In this document: positions 1 through 15,430 of the stretch, piece by piece
How the letters are laid out: each line of letters starts with the position of its first letter
How positions within the stretch are numbered: the stretch's first letter is position 1
Assembly: GCA_028714395.1 (NCBI GenBank)
Contig: JAQTMJ010000001.1
Span: 1-19,372, forward strand
Length of the DNA stretch: 19,372 nt
Direction of reading: 5' to 3'
From: Candidatus Iainarchaeum sp.
GTDB lineage: Archaea > Micrarchaeota > Micrarchaeia > Anstonellales > Bilamarchaeaceae
The notes under the pieces: generated by a model
Databases searched by the model: none
Seen by the model: the letters and a program-made list of their open reading frames with translations, nothing else
Told to the model about the DNA's origin: nothing
Made by a program: the position numbers and the translations under genes

Positions 1-654
1 GTGCTTTTTGTGGTGGATTCGCCGGGCGGAAGCGTAGTGGGTTCCCAGGAAATTTACCGTGCAGTGAAGAATCTCAGCAAGCCCAAGGTGGCCTATTTCC
101 GCGAGACCGCGGCCTCGGGCGCATATTACCTTTCGACCGGAGCGGATTACATAATAAGCGAGCCCAGCGCGCTCACCGGGAGCATAGGAGTGATAATGAC
201 TCTCGCCGACCTCTCGGGTCTTTTTGAAAAGATAGGGTACAACATGACCGACATAATAAGCGGGGAGAGCAAGGACATGGGCTCCCCGGGCAGGCCGCTC
301 ACCGCGAAAGAGCGCACCATCCTCCAGACCCTTGTTGACGAGATTTTCCAGGACTTCAAGTCCGCGGTAATAAGTAACCGCGGCTCCAGGTTGAACATGG
401 CGAAATTCAACGAGATTCTTGACGGACGGGTGGTGAGCGGGAAGCAGGCCAGGGAAATCGGCCTGGTGGATGCCGTGGGAAGCAAGCAGGACGCCATACT
501 GAAGGCTGCGCAGATGGGCAACATAACCGATGCCGAGCCCCGCCTGTGCGAGATAAGCACTTCTTCCGGGAGCGGCGGGCTTTTCGGCGCCAGCTCCATG
601 CTCGGCGGATTGTTCAGCCAGACCCAGAAGAAGGTAAGTGTTAAATATGAATGA
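1..654 (+). CDS. sppA: Signal peptide peptidase SppA-type serine protease, 5'-truncated by window edge
   Basis: C-terminal 217 residues of a membrane-bound serine protease of the SppA (S49, ClpP/crotonase-fold) family, which in archaea degrades cleaved signal peptides and other membrane-associated peptides at the cell surface. Seen directly: the DSPGG oxyanion-type motif at residues 6-10, the nucleophile motif AASGAYY with Ser39, and a candidate general-base Lys91 (GESKDMG) 52 residues later. As I recall, the archaeal SppA catalytic Ser and Lys have this same spacing. The TGSIGV segment (59-64) is also typical. The GTG at base 1 is not a credible start, because the N-terminal membrane anchor and first part of the domain are missing, so the gene begins before the window. 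It overlaps the next gene by 8 bases, so the two are probably co-transcribed. The C-terminal tail is Ser/Gly-rich. Family call is firm; physiological substrate is unknown. Confidence 0.93.
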   Translation: MLFVVDSPGGSVVGSQEIYRAVKNLSKPKVAYFRETAASGAYYLSTGADYIISEPSALTGSIGVIMTLADLSGLFEKIGYNMTDIISGESKDMGSPGRPLTAKERTILQTLVDEIFQDFKSAVISNRGSRLNMAKFNEILDGRVVSGKQAREIGLVDAVGSKQDAILKAAQMGNITDAEPRLCEISTSSGSGGLFGASSMLGGLFSQTQKKVSVKYE

Positions 655-1073: not shown

Positions 1074-1083
1074 GTTTTTAAAC
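1074..1083 (+). promoter_or_regulatory. TATA box of the pilin-like operon
   Basis: GTTTTTAAAC is centred about 25 nt before the ATG at 1103. That is the spacing expected for an archaeal promoter whose transcript starts at or next to the start codon (leaderless). It marks the 1103-4598 genes as their own transcription unit. Confidence 0.55.
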
Positions 1084-1102: not shown

Positions 1103-1696
1103 ATGATGGCACGCGCATTCATATTCTCGTTAGACGCGTTTGTGGCGTTTTCCCTGATACTGGTAGTGCTTCACGCGCTCATTTTCCTTGCCGCAGTGCC
1201 TTCCAGCTATTACGGCGCGCTCATGCAGGCAAACTATCTAGCAAGGGACACCCTGCTCTCGCTCACCGTTGCCCAGGCCAACCGCGTTGCGGGGCCGGAT
1301 ATGGCAGCTGAACCCCCTGGAGTTTCGCTCCTGGATTACGTTATAGCTCATCCTGCTCCGGATGTAATCCAGCGCCGCGTGGGCGACCTCATCCCCATCC
1401 AATACGGCTACAGGCTGGAGATATGCAAGCCCGATATTGGCGAGGCCTCGTGCAGTGCGGTGTACGACACCGCAGCTAACCCGGATGACCCGCACAACAA
1501 AGTGTACAACAAGCTCCAGGTCTCGTCCAATTCCATCTATTTCGGCTATATCAGCGAGCGCACGGGCTACGACAACGGCTACTGCTACATAACCTGCCAC
1601 GGGCGTCCGTGCCAGGACCTGTGCAAACAACCATTATCCAAATACGACACGGGCACCGCGGAACTCGGGCTTGTGAGACTCACGGTGTACAGGTGA
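1103..1696 (+). CDS. Pilin-like exported protein A, first gene of the operon
   Basis: 197 aa, function unknown. The N-terminus is short and basic (MMARA), followed at once by FIFSLDAF and a hydrophobic helix to about residue 31. This is the layout of archaeal class III (type IV pilin-like) signal peptides, where a prepilin peptidase cuts after a small residue preceded by a basic one. The acidic residue is an Asp at +6 rather than the canonical Glu at +5, so processing is not certain. The ectodomain has six cysteines, four of them clustered at about 155-173, suggesting disulfides. Start: ATG 1103 (or the adjacent ATG 1106), placed by the TATA box 25 nt upstream. The stop TGA is part of the next gene's Shine-Dalgarno site. 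Homology cannot be assigned; real gene very likely. Confidence 0.72.
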   Translation: MMARAFIFSLDAFVAFSLILVVLHALIFLAAVPSSYYGALMQANYLARDTLLSLTVAQANRVAGPDMAAEPPGVSLLDYVIAHPAPDVIQRRVGDLIPIQYGYRLEICKPDIGEASCSAVYDTAANPDDPHNKVYNKLQVSSNSIYFGYISERTGYDNGYCYITCHGRPCQDLCKQPLSKYDTGTAELGLVRLTVYR

Positions 1697-1700
1697 AATG

Positions 1701-3278
1701 ATGCGCAAATCCCGCGGCTTCTTTTTCGTGCTCATCTCCTTCATACTGATACTCTACATTTTTGTGTACCTTACCGCGTGGATAAACGCCTCGGAAATCG
1801 CGGAAAAATCGTCCTCGGAAAAGTTCAGGGCTGCGGGCATAGACGGCATAGTCTACGAGCTCAATGAGCAGAAATTCTCGGATTTCTTCAAGGGCGCGGG
1901 CTACTACGCCCTGTTCAGCATAAACAACTATTCCTCGGACTCGGCGCACACGCTGAAATACGACAAGGGCAGCAGCGACGAACTCGTTTACCTGCGGAGC
2001 GCATTCCTCTCGCTCGTGGAGCACGGCAATTCCTCATCCTCGAACTTTGATGGCGCCCCGCTTGCTTATTCATCATCCGAAGCGGACACCTACACCTTTG
2101 ACGCCTGGCTCAGGAACCTGAACGCCACCCTTGCGCCGGCCGGGCTGAGAGTGACAAAATTCCAGCTCTCCAACGAGCAGTTCTACAACGGCGACACTCC
2201 GGTGACCTTCGTGGGCGCGGTTACGCTCGACCTCACCGTTGAAGATTCGCTTTCCACCATATCCATCACAAGGAATTTCACCCTCAGGCAGACCTTCAAC
2301 ATCAGCGGATTCCCTGACCCGATGATAAAAAGGGAGAGCGAAAAGCTGCCCCTGACCGAGACTGTGGAGAGGCAGATATACTACAACCCGGATTACGAAC
2401 CTTCGGATCTCAAGCCGATTCTTGTTGACAATGAAACCGCGGGCCAGGGCTTCTTCTACGGGCCACTTATAGATGTGGATTCTGTCACCCCGACACATCC
2501 ATTCGCAGGGCTGCGCGGAACCTACATACTCGTGGGCAACTACAGCGACATATACAATCTCCAGGGCCACCAGGAATTCGGCGCATACATAGTGACCAAC
2601 GACCCCACTTACTCTAGTTCAGATGACTGCTCTGAAAAAAATGAGCTTAATACGTTCATTCCGCTCAATTGGTCCAAGTCCGGCGGCCATTGCATTGCAA
2701 CCTGCGCCGTATCAGACCCGGACGTGTGCGCCCCGGACAAGCCGTTCGCGGTAATAAAAGACTTCCATATGAATGATTATAGCGAGTACAACGGCAGCCG
2801 CATGGCCCTCCTCATAGCCAACCACACCGTCAGCGAGGTGCAGGGCACCCCGGAGCTCAAGAACCAGCTCGTGGAAGTGTATGACATAGAGAACCTCCGC
2901 GACGCAGCAATGTGCACCTATTACATACACACCGGGCGCGCCCCATCCTATCCGCAGAGGCTGAGCAAGGACGCCCTTTCCCTCAGCAGCACTGATTACG
3001 GAATTGAAACCTTCCTTGTGGGCACCTGGGCAGGAGGCGAGGACCTTCCCCTTACCCTGTACCAGGAGTACAGCAGGGTGGACTGGGAATTCTTCAAAAA
3101 AGTCGATGGAGAGAAAATCCGGGGCATGCCCGGATGCAAAAATCCAAACATGTGCGCAGCCCCGGTGGGCAGCAACGCGCCGCTGGGCCATTTCGCCCTC
3201 AGCCCCGAATCAATAGACCTTTACGAAGTGCAGGGCATCGCCTGCGAACACGGAAAAGCGAGGTGTGATGAACCATGA
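1701..3278 (+). CDS. Large pilin-like surface protein B with many N-glycosylation sequons
   Basis: 525 aa, the largest protein of the operon, family not recognised. N-terminus MRKSRG then FFFVLISF and a single membrane helix to about residue 28, followed by about 495 residues predicted outside the cell. The ectodomain is rich in Ser, Tyr and Asn, has 11 NxS/T sequons and nine cysteines, most in its last half. The acidic residue usual at +5 of pilins is absent from the N-terminal helix, so this may be an anchored adhesin or minor tip subunit rather than a polymerising pilin (inference). Start: AGGTGA (1691-1696) sits 4 nt before ATG 1701, better spaced than ATG 1698. The gene's TGA overlaps the next ATG. 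A surface-exposed role is well supported; the exact function is not. Confidence 0.75.
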   Translation: MRKSRGFFFVLISFILILYIFVYLTAWINASEIAEKSSSEKFRAAGIDGIVYELNEQKFSDFFKGAGYYALFSINNYSSDSAHTLKYDKGSSDELVYLRSAFLSLVEHGNSSSSNFDGAPLAYSSSEADTYTFDAWLRNLNATLAPAGLRVTKFQLSNEQFYNGDTPVTFVGAVTLDLTVEDSLSTISITRNFTLRQTFNISGFPDPMIKRESEKLPLTETVERQIYYNPDYEPSDLKPILVDNETAGQGFFYGPLIDVDSVTPTHPFAGLRGTYILVGNYSDIYNLQGHQEFGAYIVTNDPTYSSSDDCSEKNELNTFIPLNWSKSGGHCIATCAVSDPDVCAPDKPFAVIKDFHMNDYSEYNGSRMALLIANHTVSEVQGTPELKNQLVEVYDIENLRDAAMCTYYIHTGRAPSYPQRLSKDALSLSSTDYGIETFLVGTWAGGEDLPLTLYQEYSRVDWEFFKKVDGEKIRGMPGCKNPNMCAAPVGSNAPLGHFALSPESIDLYEVQGIACEHGKARCDEP

Positions 3279-3673
3279 GAGGCCAATCCGCACTTGAAAC
3301 GCTGGTGACCGTTTCCGCGCTCCTTGTGTTTTCCGTGCCCGTGGTGCTCCTGGTGCTCTCAGCCTCGGCCCTGAGGCTCGAGGACCTGTCCGTCTTCCAG
3401 GGCCAGACCTCGGTCCAGCAGCTCTCGGACAGCATAAACGAAGTGTACCTACAGGGCAACGGCTCCTCGCGCTCCATACTCGTGCAGCTTCCCTCGAACA
3501 CCCGAAACCTCACGGTTTCCGGCAATTCACTCACCCTCTACCTTTCCACCCAGAACGGCGTTTACGCCCTATCCCATCCGCTCCTTGCGAACGCCAGCGA
3601 ATACATTATCTCCAGGAGCGGGCTGGTCAATATGGAGATAAGCATGGAGGGGAACACGGTGGTGATACGATGA
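3275..3673 (+). CDS. Type IV pilin-like protein C with class III signal peptide
   Basis: 132 aa. The N-terminus MRGQSALETLV is a textbook archaeal class III signal peptide: a basic-small cleavage site (RG), Gln at +1 and Glu at +5 of the mature protein, then a hydrophobic helix to about residue 33. Such proteins are processed by a PibD/EppA-type prepilin peptidase and assemble through the helix into pili, archaella or pseudopili. The remaining ectodomain of about 100 residues looks beta-rich and has three sequons (NGS, NLT, NAS) and no cysteine. Start: GGTGTGA at 3262-3268 is 6 nt upstream of ATG 3275, and the start overlaps the upstream stop (ATGA), implying translational coupling. It could be the major filament subunit or a minor pilin. 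Confidence 0.82.
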   Translation: MRGQSALETLVTVSALLVFSVPVVLLVLSASALRLEDLSVFQGQTSVQQLSDSINEVYLQGNGSSRSILVQLPSNTRNLTVSGNSLTLYLSTQNGVYALSHPLLANASEYIISRSGLVNMEISMEGNTVVIR

Positions 3674-4140
3674 GGAAAGCACAGGTAGCGCTCGAATTTT
3701 TCCTCTATTCCGCAGTGTTCCTGGTGATAGTGCTCGCGGCCTATTTCGCCATATCATTTGTCCAGAGCGCGGACATAGCCAACAAGGAATCCTCGTACGT
3801 GAAGTGGTTCGGCGAGACGTTTTACTCGGCCACCACCACGGCGATGGCGGGCCAGGGCGGCTTCAGGTACACCATAAAGTTCGACAAGGACATACTCGGC
3901 GCGCCCTACGACATTTATTTCCAGCCCGCGCACGGGGCGCAGGGCGGCTTTGTATACATAACCTGGAGCAGCACCAACGCCACCTATACCTATCCCATAG
4001 GAAACATGCCCATCGTAAGCGCGGACTCCTGCGTGCATGTTTCGCAAAGCGGCCAGTTGCTCACCATAACCCCTTCCAGGGGCACGCTCACATTCTACAA
4101 CGACGGAACCAGGATTTTGCTCTCCCAGGGGTGTTCATGA
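3670..4140 (+). CDS. Type IV pilin-like protein D with class III signal peptide
   Basis: 156 aa. The N-terminus MRKAQVALEFFL has the KA cleavage site, Gln at +1 and Glu at +5 that define archaeal class III signal peptides, followed by a hydrophobic helix to about residue 32. The ectodomain is Gly/Tyr/Thr-rich, with one sequon (NAT) and two cysteines near the C-terminus (a possible C-terminal disulfide like that of many pilins). Start: ATG 3670 overlaps the stop of gene C (ATGA), with GGTGAT at 3661-3666 upstream. Genes C and D are the two members of the operon with canonical pilin N-termini, so one is the most likely major subunit. Function assigned from the signal peptide only. Confidence 0.82.
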   Translation: MRKAQVALEFFLYSAVFLVIVLAAYFAISFVQSADIANKESSYVKWFGETFYSATTTAMAGQGGFRYTIKFDKDILGAPYDIYFQPAHGAQGGFVYITWSSTNATYTYPIGNMPIVSADSCVHVSQSGQLLTITPSRGTLTFYNDGTRILLSQGCS

Positions 4141-4598
4141 TGTTCATGCAAAGGCGCCTGAAAAAGGGGCAGTATTTCAGCTTCGACGCAATAATCGCAT
4201 CCACCATATTCATAATAACGTTCGTGTCGCTCCTCACCTACTGGTTCAGCGTGAAATCCGCTCTGGACTCCAAGGACGACGACATAAGCAGGGAGGCGGC
4301 CCGCATAAGCGACGTGATGTTCACGCCCGCCTACCTCCTCAGCTCCTACGCGGACAATAGAGTGGACTCATCGGAGCTTTCCGGGCTCCCTTCGGACGAG
4401 ACCGCGCTCAGGAAGGAATTCAACAGCCCCTACAAGATCTACTTAGCATTCACTTCGCAGTCCGGCTCGCAGATACTGGACCGCGGCGAGCCTCCTCCCG
4501 CGGATGCGCACAACGTGGCAAAAGTAAGAAGGATATTCGTGCTGGATGACGGAGCTAAAGACGTCCAGGCCGCCATGGACCTCTATCTGTACAATTAG
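4140..4598 (+). CDS. Pilin-like protein E, last gene of the operon
   Basis: 152 aa, family not recognised. The N-terminus is MFMQRRLKKG then QYFSFDAIIAST and a hydrophobic helix to about residue 32. A KKG cleavage site followed by Gln fits a class III signal peptide, but as in gene A the acidic residue is Asp at +6. The ectodomain is charged and predicted alpha/beta, with no cysteine. Start: three ATGs are in frame (4137, 4140, 4146). GGGGTG at 4128-4133 is 6 nt before 4140, the best spacing, and that ATG overlaps the preceding TGA. No T-rich terminator follows; the gene faces a convergent minus-strand gene 20 bp away. A and E may be a related pair of minor subunits bracketing the operon. Confidence 0.72.
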   Translation: MFMQRRLKKGQYFSFDAIIASTIFIITFVSLLTYWFSVKSALDSKDDDISREAARISDVMFTPAYLLSSYADNRVDSSELSGLPSDETALRKEFNSPYKIYLAFTSQSGSQILDRGEPPPADAHNVAKVRRIFVLDDGAKDVQAAMDLYLYN

Positions 4599-4618: not shown

Positions 4619-5569
4619 TTAAGTCCTTTCAAACAACCCTACGATTACTGCAGGCCGATCGTTGTCATAAAATACCCTAGAACCATTCATTCTAAATCTC
4701 GGATCAACCAACGCTTTTAAGTCATCTGGCGTCCTGAGATTATATTCGAGGAAAAGTGAGGATAAAATTACCTCATCCATCATAATCCACCGCGTATCGT
4801 CTATCCTCCTTATGCACGCTTCTCTACGCTCTGGATTTTCATAGCCCAAGCGAAGAGCAGATACAAGACCCATAGCATTCGCTGTTTTCATGTCTCCCAT
4901 GCAACTCAACGTATCAATGATCTCAAGGCGTCGCAAGAAAGTTTCCGTATCACAATTGACTAGAGAACAATACGAGTCTAGCCCGCAAATCTCGAATACA
5001 ATAGGCTCGTAACGTTTTGCTAGGTCATACCACTTAGAGCTAGGGTTCAGTTTTGCTTCAGCCAGTATTACATCAACGATATCATAAATTTGCCGTTCAC
5101 TCCTGAGATTTGCGTTTATGGGGGAATCGCTGTGGTGGCAAAGCCAGATAAAGCGATCCCCCGGCAACAGTACAGCAGCTATATTTCCGCTTGAAACTCC
5201 AACATTAGTATATTCCAAAGAAAATGGCGTAATCGCCGCAACCTTTAATCCATCTTGCTCGATCCGTGAGAACGGGATTCCCACTTCCATATCGCAGTAT
5301 GTTGTTGGTACAACCGGGGCTGATTTCATCTCCGCAATGTCAAAATTAAGAACTCTTTTCTTTTCGGCGCCGGTGCTCAAGAGTCGTGCCAATTCTCCTC
5401 GCCCTCCTCCAATGACCAAAAGAACTGGCGAATCAGAAACCTGCTCGCCTACAAGTTGTACCATTAGCGGGAATTTATCAAATGGAAATACGGATGGCAA
5501 TAACCGACAAATATGGTTCCACCCTTCTTTTGCTTTATGACTCTGGAGACGAATTGGACTAATGCTCAT
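4619..5569 (-). CDS. Putative SAM-dependent methyltransferase-like protein, AT-rich orphan
   Basis: 316 aa. Residues about 49-62 hold VLLVIGGGRGELAR, a glycine-rich motif I of class I (Rossmann) methyltransferases, and NFDIAEM at 75-81 supplies the acidic residue (Asp77) that would bind the SAM ribose. A CDMEVGIPF stretch and a later LPGDRFIWL strand fit motifs further along. The C-terminal 170 residues are helical and not recognised. Substrate unknown. Start: an earlier ATG at 5587 is in frame, but a TATA box centred near 5598 is 29 nt from ATG 5569 and only 11 nt from 5587, so 5569 is preferred as a leaderless start. The gene is visibly AT-richer than its neighbours (38% G+C over 5041-5100, against 55% over 3721-3780), suggesting recent acquisition. 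The fold call is moderate. Confidence 0.62.
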   Translation of the reverse strand: MSISPIRLQSHKAKEGWNHICRLLPSVFPFDKFPLMVQLVGEQVSDSPVLLVIGGGRGELARLLSTGAEKKRVLNFDIAEMKSAPVVPTTYCDMEVGIPFSRIEQDGLKVAAITPFSLEYTNVGVSSGNIAAVLLPGDRFIWLCHHSDSPINANLRSERQIYDIVDVILAEAKLNPSSKWYDLAKRYEPIVFEICGLDSYCSLVNCDTETFLRRLEIIDTLSCMGDMKTANAMGLVSALRLGYENPERREACIRRIDDTRWIMMDEVILSSLFLEYNLRTPDDLKALVDPRFRMNGSRVFYDNDRPAVIVGLFERT

Positions 5570-5592
5570 ATAACTATCAATTATCACATTAA

Positions 5593-13809: not shown

Positions 13810-13831
13810 ATTCCCGTCGTTGCTCTATTCC

Positions 13832-15430
13832 ATGCGCAGAGGATATTTCATCATCCTATTCGTAGTTTTCCTGCTTGCCGCGTTCCTCGTGATGGGCTGG
13901 GACTCCCTTCTGCTTCTCTATTACGGGTTCAGGAGCTTCCTGCGCATGATTGCCGCATACGCGCTTTCAGTGATTTTCTCCGTCACCCTTGCGCTCCTGA
14001 TAACCCACAACAAAAGGCTCTCCGCATTCCTTTTCCCCGTTTTGGACGTGCTCCAGTCCGTGCCCATCCTGGGCTTCCTCCCTTTCGCAATCCTCTTCTT
14101 CGTGCACGTTTTCCCCGGCGGCCTGCTGGGCCAGGAATTCTCGTCCATATTCCTGATATTCACCGGCATGGCCTGGGCCATAGCATTTTCCATAGTGGAG
14201 AGCGCATCCTACATAACCAACGACATGCGCGACCTCGCGAAGCTCCTCAACCTCCGGGGCTTCCGCTACCTCACCAACATCGTTTTCCCCATCTCGCTCC
14301 CGCAGTTCGTGTCCAGCTCCATGACCGGCTGGGGCGGGGGCTGGTACTTCCTCGTTGCGAGCGAATACATCACTCTCGGCACAGAGAACATCATGCTGCC
14401 GGGCCTGGGCTCGTTCATCGCGAAATCCGCGTTCTCCTACAACCTCCTCTGGTCCCTGTTCGGGCTCCTGATGCTCGCGTTCATAGTCATAGGAATCAAC
14501 CTCTACGTGTGGCAGCCCCTGCTCAAGAAGAGCCGGGGCACCCTGGAGAAAGCCGACAGCAGCTTCATAGTGGAATCCATGGAATGGATGTACGCGCAGT
14601 TCAGCTCGTTCGGCGAGCGCTTCCAGTCCAGGTCCGAGAAAATAATGGACTACTTCTCGATAAACCCGGAAAATTCCTGGAAGAAGAACGAAACCCTCTC
14701 CACCGCATCCTATTTCATCATGGCCTGCATACTCGCGCTTTTCCTCTACCTGCTTTTCTTCAGGCTTCCCAATTACCTGGACAACCTGCTCATATTCCGC
14801 TACATGCTCTCCTCGCTCGGGCGCATAGCCATAGGTTACGTGATAGCGCTGGTGTGGACCGCTGCGATAGCCATTTTCCTTGCCAGGAACAAAAGGGCGA
14901 TGGCAATCCTGATGCCCCTCTTCGATTTGGGCCAGTCCATACCCGCGATTTCAGTATTCCCCATAGTGGTGGTGCTGGTGGTCCAGACGCTCGGCGGCCA
15001 GCTGGGCCTCAACGTCGCGTCCATCCTGCTCCTGCTCACGGGCATGCAGTGGTATTTCGTTTTCAACCTCGTCCGCGCCGTGCAGACCATACCCGAGGAA
15101 ATATCCGATTTGTCCAGCCTCCTCAGATTGGATACGCTGCAGAAGCTCAGGAACATAATGATTCCTGCGATACTTCCGGCCATATTCATAGCCAGCGTGG
15201 AATCCATAGGGGGCGGATGGAACGCCTCCATAGTCAGCGAGTACATAACAGGCCCGGGCGGAAAAGTTTTTGAGATGGAGGGCCTCGGCTTCCTCCTGTC
15301 CTCATCGGCAGCGAACGCGAACATGGACGGGATTCTGCTCGCCGTTTCAGGCATAACCCTTATAGTGCTGTCCCTCAATTACTTCATCTGGAAGCCGCTC
15401 ATAAGAGGCAGCGACAGGTACAGGTTCTAG
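13832..15430 (+). CDS. NitT/TauT-type ABC transporter permease, two fused permease domains
   Basis: 532-aa integral membrane protein with two homologous BPD-type permease halves in one chain. Each half has a run of membrane helices and a cytoplasmic EAA-like loop that contacts the ATPase: about residues 131-157 (DLAKLLNLRGF to PISLP) and 421-449 (DLSSLLRLDTL to PAILP). The halves align well, e.g. LDVLQSVPILGFLP with FDLGQSIPAISVFP, and both have GGGW followed by SEYI. A soluble linker (about 232-290) joins them. Usual single permeases of this family are about 250-270 aa and work as dimers, so this is a fused dimer. Substrate unknown; family members carry nitrate, sulfonates, taurine, thiamine precursors or riboflavin. 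No binding protein is encoded here. The operon continues with the ATPase 8 nt downstream. Confidence 0.9.
   Translation: MRRGYFIILFVVFLLAAFLVMGWDSLLLLYYGFRSFLRMIAAYALSVIFSVTLALLITHNKRLSAFLFPVLDVLQSVPILGFLPFAILFFVHVFPGGLLGQEFSSIFLIFTGMAWAIAFSIVESASYITNDMRDLAKLLNLRGFRYLTNIVFPISLPQFVSSSMTGWGGGWYFLVASEYITLGTENIMLPGLGSFIAKSAFSYNLLWSLFGLLMLAFIVIGINLYVWQPLLKKSRGTLEKADSSFIVESMEWMYAQFSSFGERFQSRSEKIMDYFSINPENSWKKNETLSTASYFIMACILALFLYLLFFRLPNYLDNLLIFRYMLSSLGRIAIGYVIALVWTAAIAIFLARNKRAMAILMPLFDLGQSIPAISVFPIVVVLVVQTLGGQLGLNVASILLLLTGMQWYFVFNLVRAVQTIPEEISDLSSLLRLDTLQKLRNIMIPAILPAIFIASVESIGGGWNASIVSEYITGPGGKVFEMEGLGFLLSSSAANANMDGILLAVSGITLIVLSLNYFIWKPLIRGSDRYRF

What the first reader, a model, noticed from the sequence alone, without database searches (positions are those of the whole stretch)
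1103..4598. Compact operon of five pilin-like proteins without assembly machinery
Five consecutive genes, with 4-nt or shorter overlaps or gaps, all begin with a short basic segment, a small residue and a single hydrophobic helix. C and D have exact class III motifs (RG then QSALE; KA then QVALE). A and E have a related form with Asp at +6 (FIFSLDAF, QYFSFDAI), and B has no acidic residue. This looks like a set of major and minor subunits of a surface filament or pseudopilus, possibly of a new type. No ATPase, platform or peptidase is in the window.
Basis: partly seen in the sequence, partly recalled or inferred. Interest (0 to 1): 0.75.

Follow-up and report, generated by a model that had tools for sequence, protein, structure and literature searches.

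The report
Five-gene pilus-tip module of Micrarchaeota
Five neighbouring genes in an ultra-small archaeon most likely encode the minor parts, probably the starting tip, of a type IV pilus whose motor genes lie elsewhere in the genome, and a set of the same kind recurs in related order in many archaea.

Summary
Five abutting or overlapping genes (A-E, 1103-4598) encode proteins with a basic leader, a small residue and one N-terminal hydrophobic helix. The genome is a Micrarchaeota assembly, probably Anstonellales.

The order A-B-C-D-E is complete in 38 of 41 neighbourhoods read; 3 are cut by contig ends. The signature is conserved: Asp+6 in A and E, Glu+5 in C and D, no acidic residue in B.

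'Without assembly machinery' is only local. The genome has a prepilin peptidase, a TadC pair beside a typical major pilin, and an ATPase on other contigs. In other families of the class the set lies beside ATPase and TadC in 10 of 20 loci read. Of 16 two-TadC loci read in the same order, 8 carry a paralogous set beside them. Related sets occur outside the phylum.

Best reading: the minor-pilin, probably tip-initiating, module of an archaeal type IV pilus, with B as the acid-less cap. B is predicted with a 49-residue helix plus head (pLDDT 92); the other four were not folded. Partner machine, tip position and function are inferred.

The parts
1075..1082 (+). TATA-like box TTTTTAAA about 25 nt before the ATG of A; suggests a leaderless transcript starting at A (inference)
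   Evidence: Sequence; a T/A-rich box at a similar distance in 17 of 17 loci printed, by eye
1103..1696 (+). A: pilin-like, 197 aa, Asp at +6 (RA|FIFSLDAF), two invariant Cys; remotely related to haloarchaeal DUF7288
   Evidence: (Asp11, Cys165, Cys174 invariant in 34 of 34)
1698..3278 (+). B: large pilin-like protein, 526 aa, no acidic residue in the N-terminal helix; candidate tip/cap subunit
   Evidence: AlphaFold2 pLDDT 92.0, pTM 0.83, helix 6-54 then further helices and a strand-containing head
3275..3673 (+). C: class III signal peptide pilin, 132 aa (RG|QSALE)
   Evidence: Gln and Glu+5 invariant in 27 of 27; related to D
3670..4140 (+). D: class III signal peptide pilin, 156 aa (KA|QVALE)
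   Evidence: Pfam PF04021 below cut-off, E=0.014
4137..4598 (+). E: pilin-like, 153 aa, Asp at +6 (KG|QYFSFDAI); remotely related to haloarchaeal DUF7287
   Evidence: (DUF7287 at E up to 0.05 in 19 of 37 members, best 4.6e-5)

Best explanation
The five genes are one transcription unit that encodes the minor-pilin module of an archaeal type IV pilus. Each product is inserted in the membrane, has its basic leader cut after a Gly/Ala by the A24 (FlaK/PibD-type) peptidase, and is pushed into a filament by an ATPase with two single-domain TadC platforms (my 'System 1'). The bulk of the filament is the separate major pilin beside those platforms. By analogy with bacterial tip complexes the set starts the filament: B, the largest and the only one without an acidic residue in its helix, is the cap, and C, D, A and E, each with Glu+5 or Asp+6, join below it. 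Shown: gene set, order, signature, peptidase, platforms and major pilin in the same genome, linkage of related sets to such machinery in other genomes, and B's predicted helix plus head. Inferred: leader processing, which machine is the partner here, position at the tip, and a role in attachment.
For: Order complete in 38 of 41 loci. Signature conserved. A24 peptidase on own contig C8, above the Pfam cut-off. TadC1, TadC2 and a GQAAIEYLMTYGWA pilin adjacent on own contig C86. Class-level loci: ATPase/TadC in the fetched stretch in 10 of 20, nine labelled System 1 by best match. Same-order two-TadC loci read: 16, of which 8 hold a major pilin and no A-E-type set and 8 hold a paralogous C-D-E-A-B set beside ATPase-TadC1-TadC2. 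Profile-profile matrices give the same-letter pair as best in 15 of 15 rows among the three Micrarchaeota sets. Outside the phylum, D-E-A in order on one strand in 13 of 19 loci by profile and ATPase+TadC in the stretch in 11 of 19. B model. A review states that conserved minor pilins form a tip-located complex capped by a subunit lacking Glu5 and that assembly runs tip to base (PMC10191384, passages).
Against: No ATPase or TadC in the fetched neighbourhood of any of 41 same-order loci, so the partner is inferred by orthology. The System-1 label is weak: in 3 of the 8 loci with a paralogous set (L272, L278, L280) the ATPase also matched the System-1 query best. In the concatenated tree one machinery-linked set joins the order set with support 0.99, but three others and the split from the paralogous sets have 0.66. 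G013 (93% complete) has the System-1 operon but no A, B, D or E match. The System-1 ATPase was not found in the window's genome. Set letters in other genomes were assigned with profiles made from the order set, so the matrices are partly circular. Tip position rests on analogy; only B was folded.
Confidence: 0.7

Rival explanations
1. The cassette is a self-contained filament: C or D is the major subunit of a separate surface fibre or short pseudopilus (secretion or DNA uptake) that borrows peptidase and ATPase.
For: C and D have exact class III motifs. The cassette is away from machinery in all 41 same-order loci read. The 14 genomes have 2 to 7 T2SSF matches each, so more than one machine could serve it.
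Against: A separate major-pilin gene lies beside TadC pairs. Several loci that have a set beside the machinery also have a further pilin gene there (L250, L253, L267, L272, L278).
Confidence: 0.14
2. The cassette works with another machine of the same cell (System 3: ATPase plus two-domain TadC; or System 2, which has its own set) rather than with System 1.
For: System 3 genes are in own genome (C45 and probably C113), and a long two-domain TadC frame in 11 of 14 genomes (my count). G013 keeps Systems 1 and 3 without the cassette. The ATPase labels do not separate Systems 1 and 2 cleanly.
Against: In nine class-level loci the neighbouring genes match System 1 best. System 2 has its own set, also in own genome on C40. 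None of the loci read has the cassette beside System 3.
Confidence: 0.16
3. The proteins are not filament subunits but single-span envelope proteins that share a processing signal, perhaps tied to the S49 (SppA-like) peptidase encoded upstream.
For: An S49 peptidase gene lies upstream in the window; a gene cluster that I took for the same peptidase, untested by profile, occurs in 24 of 41 order loci.
Against: Linkage of related sets with ATPase-TadC in other lineages; class III motifs; long helix plus head in B.
Confidence: 0.05

Closest known systems
Haloarchaeal ATPase-TadC locus followed by DUF7287-DUF7288-DUF7261-DUF7266-DUF7289 genes (Haloferax mediterranei pHME505; Halobaculum halophilum plasmid)
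   Same: Five single-helix genes beside ATPase and TadC, in 2 of 4 haloarchaeal plasmid loci viewed. The first three match E, A, B in order and in acidic-residue pattern (Asp+5; Glu+6; none). E relates to DUF7287 (19 of 37 members at E up to 0.05; profile probability 87, 85 and 20% for three E sets). A relates weakly to DUF7288 (1 of 34 members; 0, 72 and 15%).
   Different: Fourth and fifth genes have acid-less or PilA-like N-termini; DUF7266 has only 47-57% links to C/D and DUF7289 none above 9%. B to DUF7261 is by position and pattern only. One TadC gene; the set is linked to the machinery, unlike the window.
Clade 1 (Epd-like) archaeal type IV pili of Methanococci, Methanothermobacteria and Thermococci (PMC4858521; sections 9, 11, 12 read, other parts as passages)
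   Same: ATPase, two TadC components, small major pilins and at least five class III minor pilins per locus in most genomes. A Micrarchaeon, Mia14, is reported to hold a system of this group, a second system and one FlaK-like peptidase (PMC5498576, passages).
   Different: There the minor pilins lie in the main locus and the authors place them near the base. Here they are a separate cassette. I could not compare sequences with named Methanococci or Thermococci.
Bacterial HIJK minor-pilin tip complex (PilHIJK, GspHIJK)
   Same: A small set of minor pilins with a capping member that lacks the conserved Glu5 (PMC10191384, passages).
   Different: No credible sequence match to solved structures. 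Asp+6 in two members. Homology of the sets untested.

Membership tests
Type IV filament pilins (class III signal peptide proteins) | Basic leader, small residue at -1, hydrophobic helix, acidic residue at +5 (or a cap subunit without it) | tested here: met
   Met exactly by C and D; by A and E with Asp at +6; B without acidic residue
Type IV filament pilins (class III signal peptide proteins) | Pilin fold: long N-terminal helix followed by a globular head | tested here: inconclusive
   B only: helix 6-54 and head, pLDDT 92.0, pTM 0.83. A, C, D, E not folded; fold search not possible
Type IV filament pilins (class III signal peptide proteins) | Dedicated prepilin peptidase in the genome | tested here: met
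   PF01478 at G000:C8:9593-9922; 51 of 59 relatives; 32.3 bits against cut-off 26.5
Type IV filament pilins (class III signal peptide proteins) | Cleavage of the leader and presence in a filament | not testable with these tools
   Needs proteomics or microscopy
Archaeal type IV pilus of the two-TadC (clade 1 / Epd-like) kind | Secretion ATPase plus two single-domain TadC genes and a short major pilin | tested here: inconclusive
   TadC1-TadC2-major pilin on own contig C86. The matching ATPase was not found in the 84%-complete assembly but is in relatives' operons. No tree against named clades
Archaeal type IV pilus of the two-TadC (clade 1 / Epd-like) kind | Minor pilins encoded with the machinery, or orthologous to such | tested here: inconclusive
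   0 of 41 order loci linked, 10 of 20 class-level loci linked; profile matrix supports orthology, tree only in part
Haloarchaeal DUF7287/7288/7261/7266/7289 families | Match to the Pfam models above their cut-offs | tested here: not met
   Window E to DUF7287 17.0 bits against cut-off 27; none of A-D matches its counterpart; own-genome search with PF23958: no match
Bacterial HIJK-like tip complex | Complex formation and location at the filament tip | not testable with these tools
   Complex prediction and experiments not available

The most novel reading that the evidence does not exclude
Archaea have an ancient five-subunit pilus-initiation complex (two Glu+5 pilins, two Asp+6 pilins and one acid-less cap) that travels as a gene block in one cyclic order, A-B-C-D-E or C-D-E-A-B, from DPANN to other archaea. 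It would be the archaeal counterpart of the bacterial HIJK tip complex. In Anstonellales it has been cut loose from its motor operon and kept intact.
Probability: 0.48. Interest if true: 0.75.

Novelty: new member of a known kind. Interest (0 to 1): 0.5.

Why it matters
Recognising them as a five-part minor-pilin module gives a testable role to hypothetical genes in many Micrarchaeota and other archaea. It makes the start of archaeal pilus assembly testable in culturable haloarchaea (the DUF7287-DUF7289 genes), and it points to surface parts with which ultra-small, probably host-dependent archaea may touch other cells.

Tried and rejected
Sequence search of solved structures with all five alignments gave no credible relative; PCNA and designed-propeller hits are local or repetitive and were set aside. 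Search of viral contigs with D: none. PF06847 (archaeal peptidase model): sub-threshold fragments in 15 of 59 genomes, none in own; PF01478 is the better model. Own C83 ATPase hit: rejected; its 464-aa frame reads as an FtsY-like GTPase, by eye. Own C66 hit: reads as a PIN-domain ATPase, by eye. DUF7287 as the name of E: rejected, below cut-off. B equals DUF7261 by profile: not detected. PMC3875500 and PMC6668835 (passages) gave nothing on this set.

Rows dropped: alignments A1-A5 use 34, 36, 27, 33 and 37 sequences of 38, 39 or 41 loci; truncated or misassigned starts were left out by hand. In the signature count the automatic site finder misplaced 1 A and 2 D sequences of the order set, and a few of the other sets; the alignments show the residue in all order-set rows. 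Outside the order set, 1 of 9 and 1 of 5 B sequences have a Glu at +17 or +16. The tree used 45 loci with at least four of five genes. The 40 order loci, 20 class-level loci and 19 outside-phylum loci were chosen by hand from longer hit lists. The names Systems 1, 2 and 3 are mine.

Full report
WHAT IS THERE. The window is contig C1 of an 810,961-base assembly in 134 contigs, 83.7% complete. A scan of named genomes with the E alignment gave 58 loci whose titles are mostly Candidatus Micrarchaeota; the others say archaeon or ainarchaeum. One same-order genome (G061) has a contig of the same length, 920,852, as a record of LFW-35, the type of Ca. Anstonella, so the order is probably Anstonellales (inference). 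Genes A-E lie at 1103-4598 with a 1-nt gap and three 4-nt overlaps. A TATA-like TTTTTAAA stands about 25 nt before the ATG of A, and a T/A-rich box at a similar distance in 17 of 17 loci that I printed (by eye). The next long frame downstream (4619-5587) is on the other strand, so the five are likely one unit.

CONSERVATION. A matches in 50 of 59 and D in 48 of 59 relatives. B matches in 79 of 84 genomes of the order or closer (my count from the table) and in 141 of 301 of the phylum. In 41 neighbourhoods (window plus 40 chosen by hand) 38 hold all five in the order A-B-C-D-E on one strand; L079, L086 and L089 are cut by contig ends. In L112 about 1 kb separates D from E; in L094 B is split in two frames. 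The N-terminal signature is fixed: Asp of A 34 of 34, Gln and Glu of C 27 of 27 and of D 33 of 33, QYFSFD of E 37 of 37, and no acidic residue in the first 18 residues after the cut site of B in 36 of 36. C and D are related to each other, and A and E to each other, by profile comparison.

MACHINERY. No T2SSE, T2SSF or A24 match lies on C1, but the genome has them elsewhere. An A24 peptidase is on C8 (above the Pfam cut-off). TadC1-TadC2 and a class III protein GQAAIEYLMTYGWA... are adjacent on C86; an ATPase with a TadC start is on C45. The C83 hit is an FtsY-like GTPase and the C66 hit a PIN-type ATPase, both by eye. The ATPase expected before the C86 TadC pair was not found; that contig begins inside the preceding gene. 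Same-order relatives show three machines: System 1 (ATPase, usually a coil gene, TadC1, TadC2, major pilin), System 2 (ATPase, TadC1, TadC2 with its own pilin set) and System 3 (ATPase with a two-domain TadC).

LINKAGE. I read 16 two-TadC loci in same-order genomes. Eight (L261, L264, L266, L269, L270, L273, L276, L279) have a major pilin and no A-E-type set. Eight (L262 with L285, L267, L272, L275, L278, L280, L286, L287) have a set in the order C-D-E-A-B beside the ATPase, in L278 and L280 with one small gene between. Within these eight, B of L285 and L287 is recognised only by its N-terminus, and C of L278 is cut or unlabelled. The window's genome also has such a second set, C-D-E and then the contig end, on C40. 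The window-type set is never near ATPase or TadC in the fetched stretches of the order (0 of 41). In class-level families it is in 10 of 20 loci; in nine the ATPase and TadC match System 1 best, several in the order C-D-E-A-B. That label is weak, since 3 of the 8 System-2 loci (L272, L278, L280) also have an ATPase that matched the System-1 query best. Profile-profile matrices between the order set, the class-level set and the System-2 set give the same-letter pair as best in 15 of 15 rows; the weakest is B against System-2 B, probability 35%. The letters had been assigned with order-set profiles and by position, so this is partly circular. In a concatenated tree one machinery-linked class-level set (L243) groups with the order set at 0.99; the other three, and the split from System 2, have 0.66.

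BEYOND THE PHYLUM. A deep E profile, which includes two haloarchaeal rows, matches 295 of 395 genomes; by my count of the table 51 of 94 outside the phylum, taking handles G301-G394 as those. In 19 loci fetched from such genomes, D-E-A follow in order on one strand in 13 by profile (14 with L350, where A is recognised by its N-terminus), and E is directly followed by A in 17. The full C-D-E-A-B is there by profile in 6 of 19, and in 10 if one gene may be recognised by its N-terminus alone. ATPase and TadC lie in the stretch in 11 of 19. L358 does not show the pattern. In 2 of 4 haloarchaeal plasmid loci viewed, ATPase and TadC are followed by five genes that match DUF7287, DUF7288, DUF7261, DUF7266, DUF7289, one of the DUF7261 matches below cut-off. 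E corresponds to DUF7287 (19 of 37 members at E up to 0.05, best 4.6e-5; profile probability 87, 85 and 20% for the three E sets). DUF7288 links to A (0, 72 and 15%) and also to one E set (88%); DUF7266 weakly to C/D (47-57%); DUF7261 has B's place and acid-less helix but no profile match.

STRUCTURE. AlphaFold2 of B with 36 sequences gives mean pLDDT 92.0 and pTM 0.83: one helix over residues 6-54, further helices, then a head with strands. This is what a large minor pilin would look like. The second folding job and all fold searches could not be run.

HOW IT WORKS. The peptidase cuts after the Gly/Ala; the ATPase with two TadC platforms adds subunits from the base; the module starts the filament. 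[quoted passage not shown] B fits the cap, the other four the body of the tip. The partnership with System 1, the tip position and any attachment role are inferred. G013, 93% complete, has System 1 without any A, B, D or E match, which counts against a strict partnership unless it is an assembly gap.

KNOWN OR NEW. Archaeal type IV pilus loci with at least five class III minor pilins are described for clade 1, and pilins acting in trans for haloarchaea (PMC4858521, sections 9, 11, 12 read). Mia14, a Micrarchaeon, is reported to have two type IV pilus systems and one FlaK-like peptidase (PMC5498576, passages); Anstonellales genomes are reported to have type IV pili (PMC8561730, passages). I found no paper on this five-gene module or on the DUF7261-DUF7289 set in the searches, of which I saw listings and the papers named here; most subscription papers are not held. 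So it is a new member of a known kind; the fixed five-gene block shared across archaea is the part that may be new.

Noticed in passing
window 1-654 and 671-1015: An S49 (SppA-like) peptidase and a one-helix, Cys-rich protein lie upstream on the same strand. A gene cluster that I took for the peptidase (untested by profile) occurs in 24 of 41 order loci and the small protein's cluster in 16 of 41.
   Followed up: partly
L339:2973-4074 (G000:C40): A response-regulator-like and a KaiC-like gene (by eye) stand directly before the genome's second C-D-E set; PMC4858521 names KaiC-family ATPases as possible pilus regulators.
   Followed up: no
L249:3098-7711, L250:2828-5653, L251:7447-10779, L256:8456-11983: In other Micrarchaeota families A grows to 941-1537 aa and B to 1110 aa while the N-terminal helix signature is kept, as if heads were extended.
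   Followed up: no
window 13820-15430: A 536-aa ABC permease with two BPD_transp_1 stretches in one chain, followed by a gene that reads as its ATPase and near an AAA_assoc_C gene.
   Followed up: no
L109:5146-5936: Two extra C-like pilin frames on the opposite strand just before A.
   Followed up: no
L270 (G013:C2): G013, 93% complete, has the System-1 operon with major pilin but no A, B, D or E match: true loss or assembly gap.
   Followed up: partly
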